This document shows, in pieces, positions 5,095-18,812 of a stretch of DNA of 64,000 nucleotides (position 1 is its first letter; each line of letters opens with the position of its first letter). The translations under genes and the position numbers were made by a program. The DNA lies in the NCBI GenBank assembly GCA_030644725.1, contig CP130629.1, positions 496,001 through 560,000 on the forward strand, given 5' to 3'. Under the pieces are notes generated by a model. It was not told the origin of the DNA. It saw nothing but the letters and a program-made list of their open reading frames with translations, and searched no databases. The DNA comes from Candidatus Electrothrix communis (GTDB taxonomy: Bacteria > Desulfobacterota > Desulfobulbia > Desulfobulbales > Desulfobulbaceae).

Positions 5095-5375
5095 TGGAGA
5101 CGACAGGTGAGGGGGGCGAGGCACCAAGGGAACGGCGTGCCGTTGCCCCTACTACAGGGTTGCTGCATGATAGTATGCAGACCTTTTATCTCAGAGTGCG
5201 CCCTGATCGGATTGCTCTGTTTCGCTTCCTGCTGGAAGGCTACGACGGTCTGGCCGTCCTCTCCACAATGGATGCGAAACAGGGGCTGGTCAGGCTGATT
5301 GTGCCGGAGTCTAGGTATGCGGAGCTGTGGCTGTTGTTGTTTGCCATTTGCCAGGATCTGTGTCCCTCAGTATAA
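5094..5375 (+). CDS. DUF4911 domain protein
   Basis: This is a small protein of unknown function. The recognisable DUF4911-like part starts at the internal ATG 5175 (MQTFYLRVRPDRIALFRFLL) and runs to the end, rich in Leu and Arg. The upstream start at 5094 overlaps the purB stop and has an AAGG motif 4 nt before it, but the first 27 residues are encoded by a GGGGC/GCCCC repeat-like element. Either the repeat has been taken into the reading frame or translation really starts at 5175. The family has been seen beside purine or RNA-metabolism genes; I infer no specific function. Confidence 0.6.
   Translation: METTGEGGEAPRERRAVAPTTGLLHDSMQTFYLRVRPDRIALFRFLLEGYDGLAVLSTMDAKQGLVRLIVPESRYAELWLLLFAICQDLCPSV
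5106..5157. repeat. Diverged family B intergenic repeat inside a reading frame
   Basis: The stretch runs from GAGGGGGGCGAGGC to CGTTGCCCCTAC and contains the palindrome CGGCGTGCCG. It resembles the repeats at 3558-3618 and 16820-16894, but lies within the 5' end of the DUF4911 frame. Confidence 0.4.
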
Positions 5376-5447
5376 GAAAAGGTGCCCTGGGAGCCTCATG
5401 AATAATCGCTCGTACCATGCGAATGCAAATGCACAGCCGCTTTTTTC

Positions 5448-5476
5448 TTGACGATATGCTGTGCATGTATTTTAAT
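5448..5476 (+). promoter_or_regulatory. Candidate sigma-70 promoter for the cytochrome gene
   Basis: TTGACG at 5448-5453 and TTTAAT at 5471-5476 are separated by 17 nt, upstream of the small cytochrome gene with a leader of about 170 nt. The rest of 5376-5655 is AT-rich and shows no gene. The -10 match is moderate. Confidence 0.35.
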
Positions 5477-5655
5477 CCCTTACAAGATAATTTAAAGAGT
5501 TGCTTGCAATTCTATATGCTGCCAGCAGCAGAATGTTGAGCCTGAAATTGATCCTTTAAACAAGGCGTGCTGTTGCGGTCGGCTTGGTCTTAATCGCAGC
5601 CTGTATTAACTTATTTTACAGTCTGTTTTAACTTATATCATTAAGGAGAAAACTT

Positions 5656-5949
5656 ATGAAGTTATCTGTAATTGGCCTTGTTGCTGTGTCTCTGTTATTT
5701 GCTGGATCTGCTTTTGCGGTTGATATAGAAGCTGCTAAAACGGCGACAGCGAGCTGCAATGGCTGTCATTCAGGTGCGATGGCTGTCAAGTTTGCGGATG
5801 TAACAAACAAAGATGCTGAGGCCATTAAAGCTGCAATCGTTGATGGTCTGGATACGGACGCGACTGGGGTTATGCCCAAACAGGACTTAGGAGATCAGCT
5901 TGACAACGTTGTCGAATGGATCGCAGCAGGGGCTCCTGAAAGCGAATAA
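5656..5949 (+). CDS. Small periplasmic monoheme c-type cytochrome
   Basis: The 97-residue precursor has a clean Sec signal peptide (residues 1 to about 21, ending SAFA). The mature part has one heme-attachment motif, CNGCH, near residues 34-38. A later methionine (TGVMPKQD) is the probable distal heme ligand, as in class I cytochromes c. The short form fits a soluble periplasmic electron carrier. Translation is supported by AAGGAG 9 nt before the ATG. The gene stands alone between an AT-rich promoter region and a hairpin. The redox partners cannot be deduced from the neighbours. Confidence 0.88.
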   Translation: MKLSVIGLVAVSLLFAGSAFAVDIEAAKTATASCNGCHSGAMAVKFADVTNKDAEAIKAAIVDGLDTDATGVMPKQDLGDQLDNVVEWIAAGAPESE

Positions 5950-5995
5950 TACGTGTTTGACGCGCTTGATCTGAACTAAGTGCGTAAGTAGCATG

Positions 5996-6019
5996 AAGGG
6001 CAGGCACTCGCCTGCCCTT
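5996..6019 (+). terminator. Hairpin after cytochrome gene
   Basis: A 10-bp perfect stem (AAGGGCAGGC / GCCTGCCCTT) with an ACTC loop lies 46 nt past the cytochrome stop. No clear U-run follows, so it may stabilise the 3' end rather than terminate. The remaining stretch to 6441 holds no convincing gene. Confidence 0.5.
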
Positions 6020-6441
6020 GAGTCTGCCAAGGTTTTTCAACTTTCCTGTCATCAATTCCTGTATAGATTGTCCTTGCCGCATTCCCTCTGATTTCCTTTC
6101 TTCTTTATATCCATCAGAATAAGCCGTAAACTGTCCATCCCGTGCATTCAGCAGGGGACCTGTCCCGCTTCAATCAATGTCGAAGCTGTTCCTCCTGTTA
6201 AGGCTAAATGTCTTGTATGATTTTAAATACTTTAGGTCTGGCAGCTTAGGTCACCGGGATCTGTATATCCCTACGTTCAAGGTGAAAGTTTTGTTTTTCC
6301 AGTTGCTTATGTGTAAGCAAGGTGGTAGGATGCTCCTTGTATACAAGGCAGGGAAGGATTCCTCTTGGGACTGTTTGTCGCATTACTCATGAAGGGCGGT
6401 GCCGAATCCGGCACCAAATCTTAACCGCAGGAGAAGATGCA

Positions 6442-6732
6442 ATGAGTGAGAAGGAACTGTATCGGCAGAAAATGAAGGCCCGGTTGGATGAATTAATGGC
6501 GGATATCGACAAACTCAAAGCCAAGGCAGCCGGGGCGTCAGCAGATGTGAAACTGAAATTGACCGAGCATATTAGGGATATCGAAGTGAAGGTCGACGAG
6601 GGCAAGGAAAAACTGGCCGAACTCGGGAACACCAACGAGGAGCGATGGGAGTCGGTCAAGGAAGGGGTCGAGTCTGGCTGGGAGGCATTGAAGCACGCTG
6701 TCAAGGACGTTTCATCCAAGTTTAAGGAATAA
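6442..6732 (+). CDS. Small charged coiled-coil protein, sll1863-like
   Basis: The 96-residue protein is nearly all helical, with heptad-like Leu/Ile/Val spacing and alternating Lys and Glu (MKARLDELMADIDKLKAK; EKLAELGNTNEERWES). It has no signal peptide, membrane span or cysteine. The ATG at 6442 is preferred over in-frame codons upstream because CAGGAGAAG lies 6-8 nt before it. It resembles short stress-associated coiled-coil proteins of the sll1863 type; that resemblance is from general appearance only. The function is unknown. Confidence 0.7.
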   Translation: MSEKELYRQKMKARLDELMADIDKLKAKAAGASADVKLKLTEHIRDIEVKVDEGKEKLAELGNTNEERWESVKEGVESGWEALKHAVKDVSSKFKE

Positions 6733-6851: not shown

Positions 6852-7184
6852 ATGGCTACAATAAGAACTACCGCCAATCACCCCGATGGATTTCAAGATT
6901 CGCCTTGGTATGAGATAGAGCAACATAAGATATACCCGACAGTATTTCATCCTGATGGCTGGAGCGGCTTGCCTATGTATGAAATAAAGGGTAACAAAAT
7001 CTATCCGGCAGTGTCTCACCCTCATGGTTGGTCAGATCTTCCCTGGTACGAAATCAAGGGCGATAAAATTCACTGCGCAGGAAGCCACCCGCAAGGCCAG
7101 CAAAGTCTGCCTTGGTATGAAATCGTTTCATCACTACAGCCTCATAGACACTATCTTCCCGGTCAATCATTCTTTTTCGGGTAG
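6852..7184 (+). CDS. Tandem 23-residue repeat protein (HPxGWxxLPWYEIKGxKIYP)
   Basis: The 110-residue protein consists of three full 23-residue repeats (10-32, 33-55, 56-78) plus a partial fourth starting at 79. Each unit has a His-Pro-x-Gly turn, a Leu-Pro-Trp-Tyr-Glu-Ile strand, a short polar turn and a Lys-Ile-Tyr-Pro strand, implying repeated beta-hairpins. The tail after residue 95 is unrelated. The start is the ATG with GGAG seven bases upstream. There is no signal peptide. The aromatic-rich units suggest a compact closed beta array; such repeats occur in small uncharacterised bacterial proteins. I do not recognise a function. Confidence 0.65.
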   Translation: MATIRTTANHPDGFQDSPWYEIEQHKIYPTVFHPDGWSGLPMYEIKGNKIYPAVSHPHGWSDLPWYEIKGDKIHCAGSHPQGQQSLPWYEIVSSLQPHRHYLPGQSFFFG

Positions 7185-7273
7185 TACACACCGACGGCAG
7201 ATTACGATATCCCAATGGGAACGGAAAGGCACATGGCACATCGGGCACCTTTTCCACTCCCATCATACAATCA

Positions 7274-8956
7274 TCACTTCTTTTGCATCTTCGCCCAGCT
7301 ATCCCGCAGGGTAACAATTCGATTAAAGACCGGCTTGTCCGGGCTGCTCTCCTTACTGTCTAAACAGAAATACCCCTGCCGCTCAAATTGTACCCGATCC
7401 TCCAAGGCGATATCGGCTAGGTAAGGTTCCAGGATACTATTTGCCAGCACCTGACAGGAATCAGGATTGAGGAACTCCTTAAAATCTTTTTCCTTGTCCG
7501 AGTCTGGGTTTTCCACGCTGAAGAGGCGGTCATAGAGGCGCACTTCAGCCGGGATGCCATGCTTGGCTGAAACCCAGTGGATGGTCCCTTTGACCTTGCG
7601 TCCGTCTGGGGCTGAGCCGCCTCGTGTCTCGGGATCATAGGTGCAGTGCAGCTCCACCACTTCGCCGTTTTCATCCTTGATGGCCTTGTCACAGGTGATC
7701 AGATAGGCGTAGCGCAGGCGCACTTCCCGTCCCTCAGTGAGACGGAAAAACTTCCTCGGCGCATTCTCCAGATAGTCGGCGCGTTCAACATAGATCTCCC
7801 GGCTGAAGGGAACCTTGCGGGTGCCCATCTCCGGGTTCTGGGGATGATTCTGCGCTTCCAGTTCTTCTTCCTGCTCTTCCGGGTAATTGGTGATCACAAT
7901 CTTGAGCGGGTCAAGCACACCCATTACTCTAGGCGCATGCACATTCAGATCATCGCGCACCGAATTTTCCAGCACACCCATGTCGATCCAGGAATCACGC
8001 TTACCCACCCCGATGGTGTCACAGAAATTACGGATGGAGGCCGGGGTATAGCCGCGCCGCCGCAGGCCGGAGATGGTCAGCATTCGAGGGTCGTCCCAGC
8101 CGTCCACGTAGTTTTCATCCACTAGCTGGAGGAGCTTACGCTTGCTCATCACGGTGAAGTTAATGTTCAGGCGGGCAAACTCATACTGGCGCGGGCGGCA
8201 GGGTGTGGCTAGGGTATCAAGAACCCAGTCGTAGACAGCCCGGTTGTTCTCAAACTCCAGGGTGCAGATGGAGTGGGTGATCTGCTCGATCATGTCGGAC
8301 AGGCAGTGACAGAAATCGTACATCGGGTAGATGCACCAGGTGTCGCCGGTGCGGTGGTGATGCTTGTTCATGATCCGGTAGATGGCCGGGTCGCGCATGA
8401 TCATATTGGGCGAGGCCATGTCGATCTTGGCCCGCAGGGAGCAGGTGCCCTCGGCCAGTTCGCCGTTTTTCATTTGCGCAAAAAGAGCGAGGTTCTCCTC
8501 CACCGAGCGGTCGCGGTACGGGCTGTTTTTGCCTGGCTCGGTCAGGGTGCCCCGGTATTCGCGCATATCCTCCGCGTTGAGATGGCAGACATAGGCCTTG
8601 CCCATCTTGATCAGCTGGACCGCGAAGTCGTGGAGTTGGTCGAAATAATCTGAGGAAAAATAAAGATGCTCGCCCCAGTCAAAGCCCAGCCAGCGCACGT
8701 CCTCCTGGATGGCATCCACGTATTCAGTGGATTCCTTGCCCGGATTGGTGTCGTCAAAGCGGAGATGACAGACCCCGTTGTTCTCCTTGGCAATGCCGAA
8801 GTTCAGACAGATGGACTTGGCATGTCCGATATGCAGGAAGCCGTTGGGCTCCGGCGGGAATCGGGTGACGATGTTGCTGTGTTTGCCGGATTTGAGGTCT
8901 TCGGCGATGATTTGGCGGATGAAGTCTAGGGGTTTTTCGGTGATGGTGTTATTCAT
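7274..8956 (-). CDS. glnS: Glutaminyl-tRNA synthetase
   Basis: GlnS charges tRNA-Gln with glutamine in the cytosol. The 560-residue protein carries the class I signatures: HIGH at 42-45 within [15 protein letters not shown], and a KMSKS equivalent, VMSKRKL, near residue 270. The C-terminal part has the anticodon-binding beta barrels ([20 protein letters not shown]). Having GlnS suggests direct charging of tRNA-Gln rather than only the GatCAB route. The next gene upstream on this strand belongs to the accessory region, so this marks the core/accessory border. No clear ribosome site precedes the ATG. Confidence 0.97.
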
Positions 8957-9020
8957 ATTAAGATGAGTCTATTCGATAGTTAGAGGAGATTTATTATGCT
9001 GCTGAGCGTGTAGTAGCTGG

Positions 9021-9557
9021 TTATATGGAGAATGTTAGTATTATAATGGCTAGTGTTAGCATCGACAGATAAAGTATATAGTTGTGAAATTGAATTGCTG
9101 AATGAAAAATATCTATGAGTTTTTCTTTCCCTGAAAGGTTAAATCCATTTTGGATATTTGGAACTGGAAAAGTTTTGAATGTTCGTTCTGTCAATGCTTG
9201 AGAAAACTCATCGCCTTGTAAAAATCTTTCAAGTTGATTGTAGCGATGAGTATATACCTTTTGGATACTTTTGAATAGAGAGTCCAATATCCAGAATAGC
9301 AGAATTGTTATTGTAGAGTACACTATGAAGATAGTTTTTTGTTTGTCCGCAGCAAAAAAAATAAAGGTAGAAAAGACAGTAATGGACCACCCTTTTATAG
9401 TGAACAGGATTCCATCATATGTTCTAATACCATTTTGGAGTATTTCTATCTCTTGTTTTAATAATTCAAATTTGTATTGGAATTCATCATTCATTTGAGC
9501 CTTCCGTAGATATCGAAGTTGGGCAATCGAAACAGTATCATCTTCTGTTTTAATCAT
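9021..9557 (-). CDS. Three-TM membrane protein of unknown function
   Basis: The 178-residue protein has a soluble N-terminal helix region (about 1-50, rich in Glu, Lys and Gln), two membrane helices at about 53-70 and 76-94, an amphipathic cytoplasmic stretch (KSIQKVYTHRYNQLERFL) and a C-terminal helix at about 158-177. No catalytic motif is visible. Its ATG overlaps the stop of the broken Uma2 gene (ATGA), so they once formed a translational unit; Met22 is an alternative start. Codon use is more AT-rich than in glnS. The topology recalls small membrane proteins found near defence genes, but I cannot assign a family. Confidence 0.6.
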   Translation of the reverse strand: MIKTEDDTVSIAQLRYLRKAQMNDEFQYKFELLKQEIEILQNGIRTYDGILFTIKGWSITVFSTFIFFAADKQKTIFIVYSTITILLFWILDSLFKSIQKVYTHRYNQLERFLQGDEFSQALTERTFKTFPVPNIQNGFNLSGKEKLIDIFHSAIQFHNYILYLSMLTLAIIILTFSI

Positions 9558-10031
9558 TTACGGATATTCGAAGGAAAATCAGAACATATCCGTGATGTTA
9601 TAATCCTACCTTCATAGGTAAAGAATTCCATCTCACCGCTCTCATCACAGAACCACACCTCCTTTGCACCCTTGGCCAAGATACAGCTCTCTTTTTTCTG
9701 CCATCTCTCCCTTTGTATTACCGGGCGAGATAACCTCAATACATATTTCCGGTGCCATACTGTACGGTGTTTCGAATCCGTGCTGACTGATAAACTCAGC
9801 AGAAGCCCAGGCAACGTCCGCTACTTTGATGTTTTTTGAGGTCTGAATACTGACCTCAGCAGAGACCTCGCCTTCCTTCAGGAGCAGCATGAGTTTCATA
9901 GCAATCTTAACCTGAAGATTGCCGTGCAGATTCGATGCCGGTGTCATGACAATGTTTCCCCACTCATTGAGTTCTACCTTAAAGGGTATATTTTGCAGAG
10001 ACGGGTGTTCGAGAACCTGATTCCATTCCAT
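9554..10031 (-). pseudogene. Frameshifted Uma2-family (DUF820) nuclease-like gene
   Basis: The N-terminal frame (10031 down to about 9680) reads as a Uma2/DUF820 protein of the restriction-endonuclease-like fold: MTPASNLHG, VADVAWAS and a core EICIEVISPGNT with the typical Glu-x-hydrophobic-SPGN motif. At about 9678 the frame shifts: KRELYL continues in the other frame as AKGAKEVWFCDESG to the stop at 9554. Removing one T restores the expected ELYLAKGAKEVWF sequence, so this is a single-base insertion or a sequencing error. An intact version would be about 158 residues. Uma2 proteins are common in multicopy families; their role is unresolved. Confidence 0.75.
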
Positions 10032-10147
10032 GGGTACCTCTTTTCTGCATTTTTTATTATTGCAGGCTTGCCAGGCCGAGATGGATGTTTATCGGTGAAG
10101 AATTTAACATCTCCTTTTTGCTCTGGCAAGAAATCATGTGTTTCCCG

Positions 10148-10362
10148 CTACTCCTGCTCCACAAACGGCATCTGCTCCTGGATTACATCAAGCCACTGGC
10201 CCTGATTCTTACAGTCCACCCAGATAGTCAGGTTGGTCGCCGCACAGTGGTCATGATTTCCGGGATGCTGCCTGCCAACCCTCCGTCTTCGTTAACGGTG
10301 GTCAGCCAAAACAGTCTACACTTTTTGTTAATATCTTTGATATAGGGCCTGTTTTCCCGCAT
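10148..10362 (-). pseudogene. Frameshifted remnant of a small unknown gene
   Basis: Two adjacent minus-strand frames join into one plausible 70-residue protein. It starts at the ATG at 10362 (MRENRPYIKDINKKCRLFWL), continues through VNEDGGLAGSIPEIMTTVRR, then shifts by one base near 10235 to TNLTIWVDCKNQGQW and ends FVEQE at the TAG 10148. Neither half alone is long enough to look coding. I do not recognise the family. The rest of 10032-10393 shows no gene. It lies beside another frameshifted gene, which suggests local decay or poor base calling. Confidence 0.4.
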
Positions 10363-10393
10363 CAGATTTTTTGTCGTTTTTTTGAAAGCGAGG

Positions 10394-11320
10394 TTAAGAT
10401 TTTGTTTGTAGGTACAAGTCTAGGGCGTAGTCTAATAATTTCTCAATATCATGATTATCTTCATAGATTCCCTTAAAGATGATTTCTTTGATATTTTTCC
10501 ATATCCAGTGGGCAGTCAGAGTATACTCCCGATCATCTTTGAATTGATCCTCAATTATTTCAAAGTGTGCAAAATACGCCAACCGTAGATAAGAATCCAG
10601 GTTATGTTTCGAAATTTGTTTATCGGTTATTTCTTGCAATAATCTGACGGTTTGTTTTTTAAGAACAACCTCGAATGTTTCTATAATCTTCCTTCGTTCG
10701 TAGGTTAAAACGTCCCTGTTAAGATTGGTTAGTTTGATCGTCTGATATGCCCTTTCAAATTTTTCTTCATTGACTTCTTTTTTGCTACGAGGAATGAGTT
10801 GACCGGTACGCTGAACAGAGAGAAAACTTTGAGGGTAATCAACTTCAGGATGGAGTAGATACGGCTTTTCATTAACCAAATACGGATGATTGGCTTTCAT
10901 TGCTTCAAGATCCAAATTTCCGTCTGCAAGGAATTGAGGTTCTTTTACTCTACTCTTTTTACCCGACTTGGGCATAACGCGGGAGGGCACGGCAACTGGA
11001 AATTTATCGTCTTTGGCATTGTTGCATTTTGTACAGACAGGCAATAAATTGCTCCATTCATAGCCCAGCCAATAATAGCTATAGCTGCCTTTTTTTGGGC
11101 GATAATGCTCTACGGTAAATTCATCATCACCCATCATACGCTCGCAATAGGCACATTTGTTATGGTAGAGTTTTTTTAGTTCCTGTTTGACGGCAGTGTT
11201 GTAAATACGTCCATCAAATTGATGTTCGGATTGCTTTGAGAGTAAGTTTTCTTTCTTTTCTGCAAAGCCTTGTTGTAAAGCCGTAGGAGGGGCGTGAAAG
11301 TCCTTATTAACCTTTCTCAT
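10394..11320 (-). CDS. HNH endonuclease, PtuB-like partner of ATPase
   Basis: This 308-residue protein has a zinc-supported HNH nuclease core: Cys56 and Cys59 (CAYCE), His72 (VEHYRPK) and Cys96/Cys99 followed by Asn (CTKCNNAK). This matches HNH proteins that pair with an AAA ATPase in Septu (PtuB) and in some retron defence systems. The long helical C-terminal half probably binds the partner. The start is ATG 11320, inside the end of the upstream ATPase gene (14-nt overlap) with AGGAGAA upstream; the longer frame from 11407 lies wholly within the ATPase gene. The overlap implies coupled translation. Expected role: nucleic-acid cleavage triggered by the ATPase during infection (inference). Confidence 0.82.
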
Positions 11321-13082
11321 CGTCTCTCTTCTTTTCTCCTGTTTCAGGAAAGGTAAAGTTACGTGCCAAACGCTGAAGTTCCTCCGCAAGAGCATTCTTT
11401 TCAGCAACAGTGTGATAATGATCTGCGGTTTCTATCGGTTCGTCATTGTCATGGGTGATCGGAAAAAGATGCTCCACATCAAAAATTGGCGAGGTTAAAA
11501 TGGAGTTAGGTAGGAGATTGCTGATATTTTTTTCTAAGGCAGTCAATCGTTCGACTTCAATGCCTTTCTCGATACTTCGATCGACCTTCAAAAAAACAGA
11601 ATGCAGGGGAGCACCGAGTAAGGGAATAGGGCTATGGGTTGAGGCAATAAACTGGACATTGGGAAAGACTTTTGACAATAGACTTGGGAGTTCTCGTTGC
11701 CATTTTGGATGCAGATGCAAGTCTAATTCATCAATGAGAACAATGCCGAATAATTCTTTTGGTGCATAGGTTATATCGGTATCCTTTTCTTCCGGGCGTA
11801 TTGTTTTCGACAGGTTGATGCCCTTTTTGTGTTGCGTGTCCCATAGTCTCAAATAAATATCCCCGACCATGGCTACAATACTTTTTATTCCTGAAGCCAA
11901 ATGTTCGTATTCCACCGGATCAAAATTTTCATTCTGTTTTTGCTCTGCTCCGGCCTTTTCGTAATATAAGATTTTTCTTTGTTCTTTATCTAATTCTATC
12001 TTGTCGAGAGAGGGAATAAGTGTTTGTAACATCGTACCCAACTCTGCAAATTTAGTTGGTGCATCATAATGGGATATGAGCAGTTCTGCCTCGATGTTCT
12101 TCAACACACCGTCGGTATGAAATAAATTATAGGTTGCTGTACTATTTTTAGCCTGCTGCTTATGACTATCCTGGGCCTGAATTTCTAAACGAGAGGGGCC
12201 ATAAGCTGCTAAGGCCTGTAAGGAGCGAAAGAACAACGGTTGGTCAATGTTATTGATGACTTGAATCACCCTGTCAGGGTGATAATCTTTTGTATAATTT
12301 ACTGTGATTTTCGATTCTTTATTTTGTGGGATAATGATATCTTCCCTATCTCCATACAGCCCTATGGCTAAGGCTTTGAGGAAACAGGTTTTGCCAAAGC
12401 CGTTTTCTCCGGTTAGAAATACCCAGGAGGGGTTTTTCGGGAAATCATTGAGTTGAGCATTTTTGATGCCTTGAAAATTTTCTATTTGAAAGCCGTTGAG
12501 ATACACCCGTTTGATTTTTTGTTGGCTTCGATATGCATTAATACGTTGTAATGATTCTTGAAAGAGTTCTTCTTTAATTAAAGATAAAGGAATATTATCA
12601 GTATCTGCGAGTTCTTTTTTTAAAAATTGAAAGAGGATATCAAGGGCTTCCGGGATTCCAGAACGGAAGTTCCTGTCGATAGGATAAAGATTTATTTGTT
12701 GAGTATGGCAAGATTCTGGAAAAATATTCGGGTTGTGTCGTTCTACCACATTAGCAAAACTTTGAATGAGGTTGTTCCAAAATTGATTTGCAGCTGTGGA
12801 TTGGGAATGCAGATGCATACCGATATTCCACCCGCCAGATGTGTTGATGCCGAATTGCACATTATTTATGAAATGTTTGTGCTTATTACCTTGAGCGAAA
12901 TAAATGTTCACCCAACCGGATTCGGGATTATCGTAAAACCAGCGTCCTTTGTTTAATACTTTCTCATCACTCGCAGGTCGAAAGAGGAAATTAGGAGTGT
13001 CTCGATATTTCGATTCATTCCTATAGTTGAGCAAAAAGTGCAATAACTCCTCATGGAGATTGATCAACGTGTTATTTTTCAT
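11307..13082 (-). CDS. AAA/ABC-type ATPase with novel N-terminal domain, PtuA-like
   Basis: This 591-residue protein is an SMC/OLD-type ATPase. Walker A is GENGFGKT (225-232), preceded by the family start [16 protein letters not shown] signature-like LASG lies near 396-399, Walker B is [13 protein letters not shown] with Asp451/Glu452, and the H-switch is STHSP (481-485). Residues 1-190 form a separate domain rich in Trp, Asn and His ([27 protein letters not shown]) that I cannot match to a known PtuA architecture. The gene heads a two-gene operon with the HNH nuclease. By family knowledge, ATPase plus HNH is the Septu arrangement. No reverse transcriptase or msr/msd RNA is visible beside it, so this is not an obvious retron. 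Confidence 0.82.
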
Positions 13083-13202
13083 TTGTATCTGCTTTTGGGG
13101 GCATTACTGTTTTTTATTGGTCTGATATTTTATGTCATCCTGTACATGTCGAAGGGATTGTACGCTGATATCTCATGCCGAATTCGGGACTCAAAACACA
13201 CC

Positions 13203-14924
13203 TCACTCAGTCTGAAACACCCGGAACCCCTGATTCCCGAAACAGTAGATCACAAATTTAGAAATCTCCGCCTTTGGATACTCCGCACGTAAACCCTCGG
13301 CATAGCCGTCAATCTGCTCTGTATCTTCAACCCGCACCTGGAAGTCCTCAATGCTTGTCTTCATCTTCCTGAACTCAGTATTAGAAAAGTACTTGAATTC
13401 AACCACCCAGCGCAGGCCCGCATATTTTTCATTATACTTGCCCACAAACTCCAGATCGCTTCGCCCTTGGGGATAGGAACGCTCCACATGCCAGACAAAC
13501 CAGCGGGAAAGAAAGCGGCTGCACAGCTCGTAAAAGGTGGTGCGGTAGAAGTTTTCGTTCACCTGCTGAAAGATAGCCTCGGGCAGCTGGGAAACATACT
13601 CTCGCCAATACCCGGAAAAAAGCTGTTCCAAATTTGGTTGATTGGCAAAGGCCTGCATGATCTCGGCATAGCGGGTGGACACGTCGATATGATGAATCTC
13701 GTTAAAATACTGAACAAAGATGGTGCGCATGTTCATGTTGGGCAGGCAAAGGAAAAAATCATCTTTTCGAGTCAGCATGCCGAGATAAAAGAACGAGATC
13801 GGAAAGAATGACGGCTCAAAGAACTGGTACATATTGAACTTCTCGACCAGAAAGGTGTCGTCAAAGGCGATGGAGTTATGCAGAGTCAGCTGGTTAACGA
13901 ACTCCTCGGTCAGGGCCGGATTAGAGGCGGTCAGGCGGCGTACCCAAGAAATATCAGTCTTCAGATTGAGGTCGGTCAGATGCTTGGGAATGGTTTTATG
14001 ATTCTGTAGCCAGTTGAGGAAGTAGAGCACCGAAGTCGAATTATACAGGCTTTCTTCGTCACTGCTGATGAGGTGGTAGCCGTTGTACTGATTTTTCATC
14101 AGCGTACCCACCTCGGAACGGGTGGTCGGATCAAGCTCCTGATCCTGAAAGACCGCATCCACCAAGGTGTCGGTCTCGGCCTGGGTGAAACCCAGCATGT
14201 TTTCAAATTGTGGGTCCAAAGTCAGAAAGGTGGCCACATTAAAGCCCGAGGCCATGTCGTCCATGGTGATGGGCAATACCCCGGTGATAAAGACATTAGC
14301 GATGCTCTGCGTTTCCCGGCCCTGTTTCAGGGTCTTGAAAAAGGTTTTGAAAAAGCCGTTGTCCGCTGTTAATTCACGGTAAAGCTGATCCTTATTGGCC
14401 GTGACCAGTTGATTGGCAAAATTATCGTATTCGTCAATGATGATGTATAAGGGCGGCAGCTTGTATTTTTTTATATAACTGATCAGTTTGCCCAGGCAGT
14501 CAGATACCGGAGCATCAGTGTCAATCTCGGGCATATTCTTGAGCAGGGCATATTCATTGCGCATATACTTGATCAGATAATTGCAATGCCCCTTGAAGCT
14601 GCGCTCAATAGCATCAAGGGTTTTTCCCGGTTCGATAACGGAAAAATTCAGATGCAGGATAAAACAACTGTTCTGCTTGCCGGTGGGGTGCTGCCCTATC
14701 CAGGTAGGGCCGAAGAGTTCGCTGAAGCGGTCTGCTGTATTGAGGTCGTAATAATGGTTGAGGATGGAGCAGAACAGGGATTTGCCAAAGCGTCGCGGGC
14801 GGAGAAAGACCGGATTATTCACCTGCTCCAGCTCGGCAAGCCAAGAGGTTTTATCGACAAAATAGCCGTTCTTTTCTACCAGCTCAGCGTAGTTGGCAAT
14901 GCCGTAGAGGATGCGTTTTTTCAT
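13203..14924 (-). CDS. AAA-ATPase-like protein with PD-(D/E)XK nuclease domain
   Basis: The 573-residue protein belongs to the widespread AAA-ATPase-like plus PD-(D/E)XK_9 family. The N-terminus carries the hallmark ILYGIANYAELVEKNGYFVDKT, a Walker A-like RPRRFGKS (42-49) and a Walker B-like LYIIIDEYDNFAN. The C-terminus carries a nuclease-like core, GRSDLEFVG then RWVVEFKYF. Members occur in many copies in anaerobes and their function is unproven; a selfish or defence role is suspected. It is read in the same direction as the Septu-like operon but separated from it by 120 nt. The region 13083-13202 between them holds no gene and presumably the promoter of the ATPase/HNH pair. Confidence 0.88.
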   Translation of the reverse strand: MKKRILYGIANYAELVEKNGYFVDKTSWLAELEQVNNPVFLRPRRFGKSLFCSILNHYYDLNTADRFSELFGPTWIGQHPTGKQNSCFILHLNFSVIEPGKTLDAIERSFKGHCNYLIKYMRNEYALLKNMPEIDTDAPVSDCLGKLISYIKKYKLPPLYIIIDEYDNFANQLVTANKDQLYRELTADNGFFKTFFKTLKQGRETQSIANVFITGVLPITMDDMASGFNVATFLTLDPQFENMLGFTQAETDTLVDAVFQDQELDPTTRSEVGTLMKNQYNGYHLISSDEESLYNSTSVLYFLNWLQNHKTIPKHLTDLNLKTDISWVRRLTASNPALTEEFVNQLTLHNSIAFDDTFLVEKFNMYQFFEPSFFPISFFYLGMLTRKDDFFLCLPNMNMRTIFVQYFNEIHHIDVSTRYAEIMQAFANQPNLEQLFSGYWREYVSQLPEAIFQQVNENFYRTTFYELCSRFLSRWFVWHVERSYPQGRSDLEFVGKYNEKYAGLRWVVEFKYFSNTEFRKMKTSIEDFQVRVEDTEQIDGYAEGLRAEYPKAEISKFVIYCFGNQGFRVFQTE

Positions 14925-14942
14925 AGGCGGTATTGGGGGGAG

Positions 14943-16544
14943 CTACATCAATATAACGATCAGGTTAAGCAATCCGATCATGAATCCGAGCAGGGCCCCG
15001 AACAGGTTAATGTATTTAAACTGCTCCTCCATGATAGAGAGAAGAAGGCCCTCAAGGCGCATCAGGTCAAGGGAATCCACCTTTTCCGTGACCATTTCCC
15101 TGATGTTCAGGGTATGCACTAGGCCCGGTACTTCCCGAACCAGCATTTTATTGGCTGTAAGGACGATGTACTCGGTGATGCCGTTGCGGATTCCTGCTGG
15201 CATCAGGTTTTGGAGAATGCCCAGCGGCCTGGATGTCATTCGATCCACCATCGTATTGATGACCTTGTCCAGCAGTTCCCCTGTCTGTTCAGAGCGAAGA
15301 ACCCTGGACAGCTCATTAATAAGGTTTCGGCGCATTGCCTCTGCCTGGTCTTTATTCAGAAGCAGGGCCGCACAATCGGCAAGCGGGAGACGTCCCTGGT
15401 CAATTATTTTCTCAAATTGTTCTCTGACGGCATCGGAGATCATCTGCTGCATTTTTTCCGACCCGAGCATCGCCATGACTTTTTCAGCAAGCTGGTAACA
15501 GATCGCCTCCTGCTTTTCCTGCTCAACATGGACCAGCAGGTTGGCCAGTGGGGTGGACAGGAAGGCCTTGGTCTGGTCAGCCAAGGCGCGGCCTGCTCTT
15601 TCCTGGATGTCAGGTTGTTGCAGCCATTCAGCTAAGTCATCTTCCTTTTGTTCCAGCCAGGTACGGATGGTCCCGTCCATGTTGTCTACGTCAATAAATC
15701 CTTTGGCCATAGCTGCCATGGGGCCGAGACCGTCGATGAAATTTTCTATTCCGCCTTTTATGGCGATAATGATACGGTCGCGCATGGCGGGCTCAGCCAG
15801 CATATCCGCTGTCCGGCGGAGGAGCTGCGGAGCCTGTTGCTCAACCGTTGCGCAGATGAGCTGGACCAGTTCTGCCGGGAGAAAATCTTCTACTGCCTTG
15901 CCTGATACTGCTGCTTCGGTCAGTCCTTCCTGTATCCGCCGAGCAAGGAGCTTGGTGTTTTCAGGGGAGGTGGCCATCTTTTCAAGGCAGGCCTCTGTAA
16001 AGCGGTAAAAGCCTTTTCGGTCCTCTGCCTGGAGGATTTCATCAAGCCTGCGGCTACCGAATTCCGCCAACTGTTCAGGGACAACCTTGTCTAGGGTTTC
16101 CCGAAACTGGTCAGAGTCGATATAGGTTCGTACCCCAGATCGCAGCTGGTATTTCAGGGTTCTGAGGCCGATTCGGGCATAGGCCCTGAAGCGTCGGGGA
16201 ACCACGGTCTGGATCGGACCTAAATCTCGGACCAAGATGTCCTGAACCTGAACGTCCACGATCTGATGGAGATGATCCTGAAAAGGCTCTGCGGACAGGG
16301 CCGTACCGATATCTGTTGCGGTGAGCAGTTTTTCACCGACCATGTCGCCGATATTCTCGGCAAGTTCATGGCGCTTGGAAGGGATGATACCTGGGGTCAT
16401 GGGGACCCGTTTGCCCAGAATGTACCAAGGATTCAGGGGGCGAAAGAGCATGCGGATTGCTACCTTATTAGTCAGGTAACCAATAAGGGCACCGAGCAGA
16501 GGCGGGCCAGCGTAGGTGAGAAGTTGCGTTGTTGAGAAAGTCAT
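14943..16544 (-). CDS. DUF445 family membrane protein
   Basis: The 533-residue protein belongs to DUF445 (YheB-like). The N-terminal membrane segment contains the family signature PPLLGALIGYLTNKVAIRML and FRPLNPW, followed by PMTPGIIPSKR. The middle is long and helical, and a C-terminal hydrophobic helix (GALLGFMIGLLNLIVILM) probably returns to the membrane. The start is put at ATG 16544 (MTFSTTQLL); the 22-codon extension upstream is translated from the dispersed intergenic repeat and is rejected. Function is unknown, though the family is envelope-associated in Bacillus. It ends 18 nt before the start of the PD-(D/E)XK gene and could be read into it. Confidence 0.85.
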   Translation of the reverse strand: MTFSTTQLLTYAGPPLLGALIGYLTNKVAIRMLFRPLNPWYILGKRVPMTPGIIPSKRHELAENIGDMVGEKLLTATDIGTALSAEPFQDHLHQIVDVQVQDILVRDLGPIQTVVPRRFRAYARIGLRTLKYQLRSGVRTYIDSDQFRETLDKVVPEQLAEFGSRRLDEILQAEDRKGFYRFTEACLEKMATSPENTKLLARRIQEGLTEAAVSGKAVEDFLPAELVQLICATVEQQAPQLLRRTADMLAEPAMRDRIIIAIKGGIENFIDGLGPMAAMAKGFIDVDNMDGTIRTWLEQKEDDLAEWLQQPDIQERAGRALADQTKAFLSTPLANLLVHVEQEKQEAICYQLAEKVMAMLGSEKMQQMISDAVREQFEKIIDQGRLPLADCAALLLNKDQAEAMRRNLINELSRVLRSEQTGELLDKVINTMVDRMTSRPLGILQNLMPAGIRNGITEYIVLTANKMLVREVPGLVHTLNIREMVTEKVDSLDLMRLEGLLLSIMEEQFKYINLFGALLGFMIGLLNLIVILM

Positions 16545-16555
16545 TTTTTTTTTGT

Positions 16556-16760
16556 AGAGTTTATATGAAAGTTCCGAGTAACTCCTTGGGGTTAAACGAT
16601 AATCATTCATTTTTTATTGTCTCACCCCCCCCCAAAAAAAAAGGGGGGGAGATGGGAGTTTATATGAAAGTACCGGCGACTCCTTGGAGTCGCCTGAACA
16701 ACTTTCATGTTATGTTGTCCCTCCCCAGAGGGGAGGGATGGGTGTTATATCGTAAAAGAT
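16556..16760. repeat. Intergenic repeat family A, two tandem units
   Basis: There are two copies of a roughly 95-nt unit. Each begins GTTTATATGAAAGT(A/T)CCG, continues with a self-complementary CGACTCCTTGGAGTCG core (degraded in the first), then AACTTTCATGTT and a CCCTCCCC...GGGGAGGG hairpin. The first unit has a run of C and A between C- and G-tracts at 16629-16650. Further copies lie at 61379-61575 (two units), 45713-45752 (partial, inverted) and 39461-39530 (degenerate). All are intergenic. Confidence 0.85.
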
Positions 16761-16819
16761 TTAAAAAAATAAAGTCAGTGATTTTTAAAAAGTAAGCCCT
16801 TCGTTTTTGGAGCAGGGCT

Positions 16820-16894
16820 GTAGGGACAGCCCCCGTGCCTGTCCTTTATTTCCTGGGGTGGTATGAGGGGCGGACACGCAGGTTCGCCCCTATA
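16820..16894. repeat. Intergenic repeat family B copy
   Basis: Two GGGxC/GxCCC half-units (TAGGGACAGC/GCCTGTCC and GAGGGGCGGACAC/GTTCGCCCCTAT) match the layout of the element at 3558-3618. With the family A copies it fills most of the 540-nt gap between the divergent DUF445 and CooC-like genes. No gene is seen there. Confidence 0.6.
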
Positions 16895-17087
16895 GGAAAG
16901 AAAAGATAAAACATAGTTATGATTCCGTCCACCGGGAATCATAAGGAACATCTTTTTTCCTTTCCGTTTCACTTGGAAACAACGAACCTTTAGGGTATAG
17001 TTCATCACTGTATACATGTGATTGATACTGTTTCATGACAGTTATGACAGGAATTTTTTATATTCAAGGCAATCTCAAGGCAATTCA

Positions 17088-17855
17088 ATGACCAAAGTTA
17101 TAGCACTCGCTGGTAAGGGTGGGACCGGCAAAACAACAACCTCGGCCCTGCTGTTGAAATATCTCGTCGCCCGCAAAATGACCCCGGTTCTTGCTGTGGA
17201 CGCCGATGCAAATGCAAATCTCAATGAGCTGGTCGGGCTCGACGTGCAAACAACCCTAGGGCAAATCCGTAAGGAGCTGAAGGGCGATATGCCTACAGGT
17301 ATGAGCAGGGACCAGTACATGGAGATGAAAATCCATCAGGCCCTGATCGAAGAGACGGGTTTTGATCTGATGGTGATGGGCCAACCCGACGGGCCGGGCT
17401 GTTATTGCGCAGCCAACCAGTATTTAGCCATGACTATGGACAAGCTGGCGGAAAACTACAAATACATTATCGTGGACAATGAGGCAGGGATGGAACATCT
17501 GAGCAGGATGAATCTATGCAGTATCGATTACCTGCTCATTGTTTCCGATCCTTCTGCCCGTGGCATCATGACGGCCCGGCGGATTGCCGATATCACCGGT
17601 CCGCTGAAGCTGGAAGTCAAGCACCAATATTTACTGGTCAACCGGGCTCCTGATCCGGTTCCACCGGCTCTGCAAGCAAAGATTGACGAGGCTGTTGCCG
17701 AGGCTGATATGGATTTGGCAGGGATTGTTTCCTCCAGTGACGACCTGATTGATCAAGAACTGAGCGGGGCCTCGTATTTGGAGCTGGCTGAAGACAGTAA
17801 GGTCATTGAGCAGGTCTTTGCTGTCTTTGATGCTATCTTCGAGGATGCGTCGTAA
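17088..17855 (+). CDS. CooC-like nickel-insertion ATPase (MinD/ArsA superfamily)
   Basis: The 255-residue P-loop protein starts MTKVIALAGKGGTGKTT, a deviant Walker A (GKGGTGKT, 9-16) typical of CooC/MinD ATPases. AVDADANANLNE is the switch I region. Cys105-Tyr-Cys107 in GPGCYCAAN is the CxC metal-binding pair conserved in CooC, which matures Ni-containing carbon monoxide dehydrogenase. No CODH gene is in the window, so the client is elsewhere or differs. The start is ATG 17088; the in-frame extension upstream has no family similarity. It precedes ftsE by 93 nt on the same strand but is probably a separate function. Confidence 0.88.
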   Translation: MTKVIALAGKGGTGKTTTSALLLKYLVARKMTPVLAVDADANANLNELVGLDVQTTLGQIRKELKGDMPTGMSRDQYMEMKIHQALIEETGFDLMVMGQPDGPGCYCAANQYLAMTMDKLAENYKYIIVDNEAGMEHLSRMNLCSIDYLLIVSDPSARGIMTARRIADITGPLKLEVKHQYLLVNRAPDPVPPALQAKIDEAVAEADMDLAGIVSSSDDLIDQELSGASYLELAEDSKVIEQVFAVFDAIFEDAS

Positions 17856-17914
17856 CACCATCCAGTATATTTTTAAAATTTTTTAAAAAAGTTAAACATA
17901 GTCTAACCTTGATA

Positions 17915-17931
17915 CCTGTCCATTGGACAGG
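17915..17931 (+). promoter_or_regulatory. Hairpin at the ftsE translation start
   Basis: CCTGTCC and GGACAGG pair perfectly around an ATT loop. The 3' arm merges with the only purine-rich ribosome-site candidate (AGGGCGG) before ftsE, so folding could limit ftsE translation. This is inference from sequence alone. Confidence 0.4.
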
Positions 17932-17948
17932 GCGGTTCATTGCGTTTT

Positions 17949-18812
17949 ATGATCACAGAAGAAGATGAACAGGCCATGATTGAGCTAATTCGGGTCAGTA
18001 AGGTGTACCCCCCGGATATCCAAGCTCTCGCAGATATATCCCTGCGGATCAATAAGGGGGAAATCTGTTACCTCACCGGCATGAGCGGGGCCGGAAAAAC
18101 CACCCTCCTTCGTATGCTGTGCGGGATTGATACGCCGGATCGGGGCTATATTGAAGTTGCTGGCAAAGAACTCAATAAATTATCAGGTGCGGAAATGCAG
18201 GCCTTGCGTCGGAGTATTGGGGTGGCATACCAGGATTTTAAACTGCTGCCCGAAAAAACCGTGGCCCAGAATATTGCCTTTTCCATGGAAGTGGCCTACC
18301 GGAGCAGGTCGTTTATCCGGCAACGGACCAGTACCTTATTATCGCAGCTTCGCCTTTCAGATAAGGTGAATACCCGGGCCGGGAAGCTTTCTCGGGGAGA
18401 ACAGCAACGGGTGTCCATTGCCAGGGCCGTAGCTAATGATCCGGTGCTTATCCTTGCTGACGAGCCCACCGGTAATCTTGATACTGAGACCACTGAGTTG
18501 GTTATGGCTCTTTTTCATCATTATAACGAAAAAGGGACGACATTGCTTATCGCCACCCATGATCATTCCATTTATAATTATCCGGGCAGCAAAGTTGTCA
18601 CCATTGAACAGGGACGGATGCTTGTTGCCGGTGAGTCGAATGGTTCCGGCGAACCCGCTGAACCCACCGCATCGATCGATACGACAGGTACCGTAGCGCC
18701 CGACACCACTCTGAAGGCAGCCGAAAGCGGCCATCAGGACGATAAGCTCAGAGAACAGATTATCATCAACAGGGGTCTTGGGCATGTAAGGCGAAAAGGG
18801 GCGGCAGTATGA
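17949..18812 (+). CDS. ftsE: Cell-division ATP-binding protein FtsE
   Basis: FtsE is the ATPase of the FtsEX complex, which couples division to peptidoglycan hydrolase activation at the inner membrane. Motifs are Walker A GMSGAGKT, the Q-loop YQDFKLLP, the signature LSRGEQQRV, Walker [13 protein letters not shown] and the switch His in IATHD. The protein is longer than the usual 220 residues: a 60-residue hydrophilic tail rich in Thr, Ala and Gly follows the ABC core. The start is uncertain: ATG 17949, TTG 17940 (best spaced to GGGCGG) or ATG 17976, where family homology begins. The stop overlaps the ftsX start (ATGA). Confidence 0.93.

What the first reader, a model, noticed from the sequence alone, without database searches (positions are those of the whole stretch)
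10394..13082. Septu-like ATPase/HNH pair with an unexplained 190-residue N-terminal domain
The ATPase has intact Walker A (225-232), Walker B and H-switch, and the HNH partner has an intact CxxC-H-CxxC core. The genes overlap by 14 nt. ATPase plus HNH is the established Septu arrangement, but residues 1-190 of the ATPase (Trp/Asn/His-rich, with GWVNIYF and GWNIGMHLH motifs) are not part of any PtuA layout I know. The domain may be a sensor or trigger specificity module, making this a variant or new subtype.
Basis: partly seen in the sequence, partly recalled or inferred. Interest (0 to 1): 0.8.

Follow-up and report, generated by a model that had tools for sequence, protein, structure and literature searches.

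The report
Septu defence pair with extra domain
This is a two-gene bacterial anti-virus system of the known Septu type, whose ATPase carries an extra front domain that an existing Septu model already covers but whose job is still unknown.

Summary
In detail: a 591-aa ATPase (11307-13082, -) and a 308-aa HNH protein (10394-11320, -) overlap by 14 nt, with intact motifs at the stated residues. The pair is Septu type I by gene content. PADLOC PtuA1 model PDLC00287 matches the ATPase end to end (residues 6-571, 258.9 bits), and PtuB1 model PDLC00316 matches the HNH protein (188.9 bits). No reverse-transcriptase match lies within 0.8 Mb.
The 190-residue N-terminal domain is real. It has no Pfam match and no solved relative. 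But PDLC00287 already contains it, so it is a known though apparently undescribed PtuA1 branch, not a layout outside Septu.
New here: the domain also occurs alone, as a 168-aa gene in a groundwater deltaproteobacterium. The window's own genome has a second Septu of ordinary short layout. In the phylum sample 2 of 395 genomes carry the domain.
Structure predictions failed (pLDDT 38 and 41), so "sensor" remains inference. Best reading: an ordinary ATP-gated PtuA-PtuB nuclease with an added regulatory module; ordinary as a system, modestly interesting for the domain.

The parts
11307..13082 (-). ptuA: PtuA-type ABC/AAA_21 ATPase with N-terminal domain, 591 aa
   Evidence: PDLC00287 residues 6-571, 258.9 bits; PF13304 58.4 bits
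12513..13082 (-). N-terminal domain, residues 1-190 of PtuA
   Evidence: PDLC00287 positions 4-180 with residues 6-188, 21.6 bits, E 1.9e-5; similar to the standalone 168-aa protein L006:1501-2007; no Pfam match at E<=10
12387..12410 (-). Walker A GENGFGKT, residues 225-232
11880..11900 (-). ABC-signature-like LASGIKS, residues 395-401
   Evidence: aligns with LSDG/LSxGxK of other PtuA, G398 invariant in 7 sequences; the name 'signature' is recalled
11706..11738 (-). Walker [12 protein letters not shown], residues 449-459
   Evidence: IDE...HLHP invariant in 7 aligned PtuA-like ATPases
11628..11642 (-). H-switch STHSP, residues 481-485
   Evidence: H483 invariant in 7 sequences
10394..11320 (-). 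ptuB: HNH endonuclease, 308 aa from ATG
   Evidence: PDLC00316 residues 1-291, 188.9 bits; TIGR02646 60.0 bits, cut-off 52.15; PF01844 26.0 bits
11024..11155 (-). HNH core CxxC-H-CxxC (C56, C59, H72, C96, C99)
   Evidence: all five invariant in 3 aligned PtuB
11307..11320 (.). 14-nt ptuA/ptuB overlap

Best explanation
A Septu type I anti-phage operon. PtuA is an ABC-type ATPase that should assemble with the HNH nuclease PtuB and hold it inactive until infection; PtuB then cuts nucleic acid (DNA or tRNA in studied relatives) and stops phage production. The extra N-terminal domain belongs to an existing, apparently undescribed PtuA1 branch (PADLOC PDLC00287) and most likely acts as an add-on regulatory or trigger-recognition module. 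Shown here: gene content, intact motifs, model membership, distinctness of the domain, its occurrence as a separate protein. Inferred: assembly, ATP gating, target, and the regulatory role of the domain.
For: End-to-end PADLOC matches for both proteins. Residues 191-591 alone also prefer the domain-bearing model (244.3 against 131.4 bits for the next). Motifs intact. Genes overlap by 14 nt. The pair sits in a low-GC block (600-base windows of 33-47% from 8900 to 13399; glnS flank up to 59%, right flank 48-55%) in a glnS-DUF445 interval where PtuA and PtuB gave no match in 6 of 6 congeners whose fetched stretch holds both flanks, nor in 1 with a cut contig. The domain exists as a lone 168-aa protein with no PtuA- or PtuB-like neighbour, so it may be an independent module. 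The same genome has a second Septu without it. Literature: Walker A/B of PtuA and the H-N-H motif of PtuB are both needed in Septu EcB88, which cuts tRNA-Tyr (PMC13096335, passages); Ec83 msDNA holds PtuAB inactive and its loss frees it (PMC12948488, passage).
Against: No phage assay. The domain's own match to PDLC00287 is modest (21.6 bits), and it adds only about 15 bits to the whole match. Only one fused and one lone example are in hand; the lone gene could be a remnant of a lost ptuA. No fold could be predicted, so nothing direct says regulator rather than scaffold. The equivalog models NF041760 and NF041761 are far below cut-off (95.8 of 500; 72.6 of 150). The low GC is not unique: windows at 5300-6499 are also 45-47%.
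Confidence: 0.6

Rival explanations
1. The N-terminal domain is structural: it helps PtuA oligomerise or dock PtuB, and senses nothing.
For: Solved PtuA-PtuB is an oligomer (6:2 in the table of PMC12948488, passages). The domain is fused directly ahead of the ATPase core, and that ATPase core prefers the domain-bearing model.
Against: The domain also exists alone: none of 10 neighbouring ORFs tested matches a PtuA or PtuB model at E<=1e-5 and no HNH-like pattern or PtuA-like Walker B is in the 14.5-kb locus; a transporter-type ATPase, pstB-like by eye, does lie nearby. The second PtuA in this genome lacks the domain.
Confidence: 0.25
2. The N-terminal domain is a second catalytic or toxic domain fused to PtuA, released or activated with the nuclease.
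For: A lone 168-aa copy in another genome could be a self-sufficient enzyme. His10, Glu12, His126 and Glu176 are among 40 columns shared by the two sequences.
Against: No enzyme family matched. Of the 40 shared columns 26 are hydrophobic, aromatic, Gly or Asn and no recognisable catalytic set was seen (two sequences only).
Confidence: 0.1
3. Septu type II / retron I-A whose reverse transcriptase is elsewhere or lost.
For: The HNH protein exceeds the TIGR02646 'retron system putative HNH endonuclease' cut-off. The genome does have reverse transcriptases.
Against: None of the 7 PF00078 matches lies closer than 1.55 Mb on the linear contig, or 0.81 Mb if the contig is circular. No Rfam match in 7000-18000.
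Confidence: 0.03
4. The long N-terminus is an artefact: a separate gene or untranslated leader read into ptuA.
For: The lone relative exists as a separate gene. The ATG at 13082 has no strong ribosome-binding site by eye.
Against: The PADLOC PtuA1 profile has the same order and spacing (profile positions 4-565 against residues 6-571). The frame is open throughout in a one-contig genome.
Confidence: 0.03

Closest known systems
Septu type I, PADLOC PtuA1 model PDLC00287 with PtuB1 model PDLC00316
   Same: Both proteins match nearly end to end; N-terminal domain present in the model.
   Different: The window's domain is divergent from the model (21.6 bits against 110.7 for the lone deltaproteobacterial copy).
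Canonical Septu PtuA (PDB 8ee4, 465 aa; that it is from E. coli is recalled)
   Same: ATPase core: residues 443-496, with Walker B and H-switch, align with 312-365 of the chain.
   Different: Walker A lysine is residue 43 in Septu EcB88 PtuA (PMC13096335, passage) and residue 231 here: about 190 residues more in front.
Retron I-A effectors PtuA/PtuB (Ec78, Ec83; PDB 9vh1, 9e8z)
   Same: PtuA ATPase plus HNH PtuB.
   Different: They work with a reverse transcriptase and msDNA; none lies near here. In the alignments shown for Ec78 and Ec83 chains the Walker A lies near residues 93-101, so their front extension is shorter.
Second Septu of the same genome (L101:2709-4582, G000 C1 about 1139208-1141081)
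   Same: PtuA (PDLC00271, 307.7 bits) followed by PtuB (PDLC00332, 176.4 bits).
   Different: 418-aa PtuA starting directly with the ATPase; no N-terminal domain.

Membership tests
Septu type I | PtuA ATPase matching a PtuA1 model | tested here: met
   PDLC00287, 258.9 bits, residues 6-571
Septu type I | Adjacent HNH PtuB matching a PtuB1 model | tested here: met
   PDLC00316, 188.9 bits, residues 1-291; 14-nt overlap
Septu type I | Intact Walker A, Walker B, H-switch and HNH residues | tested here: met
Septu type I | Phage defence dependent on both activities | not testable with these tools
   needs a phage challenge
Septu type II / retron I-A | Reverse transcriptase gene in front of ptuAB (PMC8565338, passages) | tested here: not met
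   7 PF00078 matches in the genome, the nearest 1.55 Mb away (0.81 Mb if circular)
Septu type II / retron I-A | msr-msd RNA | tested here: inconclusive
   no Rfam match up to E 1 in 7000-18000; many retron RNAs may not be in Rfam
Septu type II / retron I-A | NCBIfam equivalogs NF041760 / NF041761 above cut-off | tested here: not met
   95.8 of 500 and 72.6 of 150 bits
DUF4268 (PF14088), considered for the N-terminal domain | Sequence or profile similarity | tested here: not met
   no such Pfam match at E<=10; hhalign of A1 against 5 DUF4268 domains: probability 0.2%; weak test, A1 has two rows

The most novel reading that the evidence does not exclude
The N-terminal domain is a mobile infection sensor or inhibitor of its own: fused to PtuA it takes the gating role that msDNA plays in retron-Septu, and as a lone gene it works in trans. 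That would be a protein-triggered Septu branch already hidden inside a PADLOC model.
Probability: 0.2. Interest if true: 0.65.

Novelty: new member of a known kind. Interest (0 to 1): 0.33.

Why it matters
What switches stand-alone Septu on is not settled in the sources I could read: in PMC13096335 a candidate trigger was tested and not confirmed (passage). A PtuA branch with a separable front domain, in a genome that also holds an ordinary Septu, is a clean place to ask whether added domains set the trigger. The lone copy of the domain makes it testable by itself. As a system it is ordinary Septu.

Tried and rejected
Retron reading: rejected, no reverse transcriptase near, no Rfam match.

More relatives of the N-terminal domain: none in plasmids or phages; none in viral contigs (and a degenerate DNA pattern, whose single hit L098 I judge chance: by eye the matching frame is a short one closed by stops and lies opposite another ORF). 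One in genome contigs, the already known lone copy. Within the phylum: window domain 1 of 297 genomes, its own; a PDLC00287 match reaching into the first 150 profile positions in 2 of 395, its own and G322 (at most 3 candidates a genome were scored, so misses are possible); A1 profile 1 of 257 in the class, its own; the lone protein 1 of 63 in the class of G322, itself. meant to draw new genomes but every match it listed was in a genome already, so it adds nothing. PtuA relatives begin at query residue 174 or later in 27 of 27 plasmid records and at 212 or later in 7 of 7 phage records. Among the loci then in hand, minus five copies of the window or L006 loci left out, the A1 profile hit only L006. 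PtuB model PDLC00316 at E<=1e-20: 2 of 395 genomes, its own and G222, whose PtuA is cut by the contig end.

Weak database rows in the domain, taken as chance: PHROGs E 0.22 and 0.32; PDB 5frf at query 143-195, E 0.98; FliG E 8; for the lone copy Lipocalin_7 13.7 bits, cut-off 25.4, and gastrotropin E 0.46.

Fold: two AlphaFold2 jobs with two-sequence alignments gave pLDDT 38.2 and 41.0, too poor to use. The second suggests helix, five strands, three helices only as a hint. A Foldseek search with it gave 0 matches at E<=0.001; weak AriA rows there are not used. DUF4268 resemblance, a lead from memory, was not supported.

Promoters and terminators: no more than in shuffles.

Full report
What is there. 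On the minus strand, ptuA (11307-13082, 591 aa) is followed by ptuB (10394-11320, 308 aa from its ATG), overlapping by 14 nt. The N-terminal region is asparagine-rich (12.6% against 5.7%), carries 4 Trp, and is not notably His-rich.

What the pair is. PADLOC's PtuA1 model PDLC00287 matches PtuA from residue 6 to 571 (profile 4-565 of 584, 258.9 bits), and PtuB1 model PDLC00316 matches PtuB from 1 to 291 (188.9 bits). Of the 25 best models shown for PtuA (of 127), 24 are PtuA1 and 1 is the retron I-A ATPase; of the 25 shown for PtuB (of 70), 21 are PtuB1, 3 PtuA1 and 1 the retron I-A HNH. Pfam gives AAA_21 and HNH; NCBIfam TIGR02646 is above its cut-off for PtuB. The best PDB sequence matches of PtuA are chains named PtuA, retron ATPase or AAA family ATPase. 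The genome has 7 reverse-transcriptase (PF00078) matches, none closer than 1.55 Mb on the contig or 0.81 Mb if it is circular. PADLOC's paper defines Septu type II by an RT gene in front of ptuAB (PMC8565338, passages), so by gene content this is type I.

The N-terminal domain. Alone, residues 1-194 match only PDLC00287 in PADLOC (21.6 bits, E 1.9e-5, profile 4-180), no Pfam family at E<=10, no PHROG better than E 0.22, and no PDB chain worth naming: the two-row profile A1 gave one row, at E 8. Residues 191-591 still prefer PDLC00287, 244.3 bits against 131.4 for the next model, so ATPase and domain belong to one PtuA1 branch. I found no description of the domain in the paper library (searches; listings, plus passages of PMC8565338, PMC11555353, PMC11811056, PMC11980606, PMC12948488 and PMC13096335). 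Three structural papers on Septu and retron-Septu were not held, so absence from print is not established.

The domain alone. The phylum search found a second match to the model's N-terminal part: a 168-aa ORF that scores 110.7 bits to PDLC00287 positions 6-156. It lies in a deltaproteobacterial groundwater MAG, record JACRNL010000006.1. Its neighbours, named by eye from translations, look like housekeeping genes, including a phoU-like gene and phosphate-transport-like genes. None of the 10 neighbouring ORFs that I sent to PADLOC matches a PtuA or PtuB model at E<=1e-5; the pstB-like transporter ATPase among them matches other ATPase models. No frame in the 14.5-kb locus has an HNH-like cysteine pattern or a PtuA-like Walker B. 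The lone protein aligns with the window domain at 24% identity, BLASTP E 6e-6 for a single pair, local score 81 against at most 58 in 2000 shuffles. So the domain can stand alone, or that gene is a remnant of a lost ptuA; I cannot tell which.

Distribution. Within the phylum sample 2 of 395 genomes have a match reaching into the domain. PtuA relatives on plasmids (27 of 27) and phages (7 of 7) start after it. Other phyla could not be searched beyond one genome-contig scan, which found only the lone copy, and the plasmid, phage and viral collections. The domain's true range is therefore unknown.

Setting. The pair is in a low-GC block (33-47% in 600-base windows from 8900 to 13399), between glnS (up to 59%) and a right flank of 48-55%; windows at 5300-6499 are also 45-47%. 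The interval lies between glnS and a DUF445-like gene (both names recalled from the sequences, not from a call). In six congeners whose fetched stretch holds both flanks, and in one with a cut contig, PtuA and PtuB gave no tblastn match at E 1e-3, and other open frames are present. The same genome has a second Septu of canonical layout about 630 kb away: a 418-aa PtuA (PDLC00271, 307.7 bits) and PtuB (PDLC00332, 176.4 bits).

How it likely works. In Septu EcB88 both ATPase and HNH residues are required (PMC13096335, passages). The nuclease targets tRNA-Tyr in Septu EcB88 and retron Eco7, whereas E. [quoted passage not shown] PMC13096335). In Ec83, msDNA keeps PtuAB inactive until infection (PMC12948488, passage). 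By analogy PtuA here gates PtuB with ATP; the added domain, replacing neither ATPase nor nuclease, is best read as a regulatory or trigger module. A scaffold role is the main rival. Two structure predictions were unusable, so nothing here separates these.

Verdict. Observation confirmed; Septu assignment confirmed at model level; novelty of the layout not supported; role of the domain open.

Noticed in passing
G000 C1 about 1139208-1141081 (L101:2709-4582): A second Septu pair of canonical short layout in the same genome (PDLC00271 and PDLC00332).
   Followed up: yes
9554-10031 (-): Uma2-family gene looks frameshifted: its 128-aa frame ends at 9645 and Uma2-like reading seems to continue in another frame (9554-9814); longer open frames with a 90%-identical match are in congeners L092 and L096.
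   Followed up: partly
9021-9557 (-): 178-aa protein matching the PADLOC candidate family PDC-M50A (51.4 bits), in the same low-GC block as the Septu pair.
   Followed up: no
13203-14924 (-): PF09820 AAA-ATPase_like plus PF08011 PDDEXK_9 protein, present at 92-99% identity in 3 of 7 congeners' fetched stretches (L091, L092, L097).
   Followed up: partly
L091:4162-8013: A 1284-codon open frame fills the same glnS-DUF445 interval in a congener; the interval looks like a variable spot for accessory genes.
   Followed up: no
L028:400-1929: Another ABC-type ATPase (510 aa, AAA_21) with a different front extension of about 195 residues before Walker A.
   Followed up: no
G000 C1, 2.06, 2.31, 2.41, 3.66, 4.11 and 4.54 Mb: Seven reverse-transcriptase matches, five of them above the Pfam cut-off, far from the window.
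   Followed up: no
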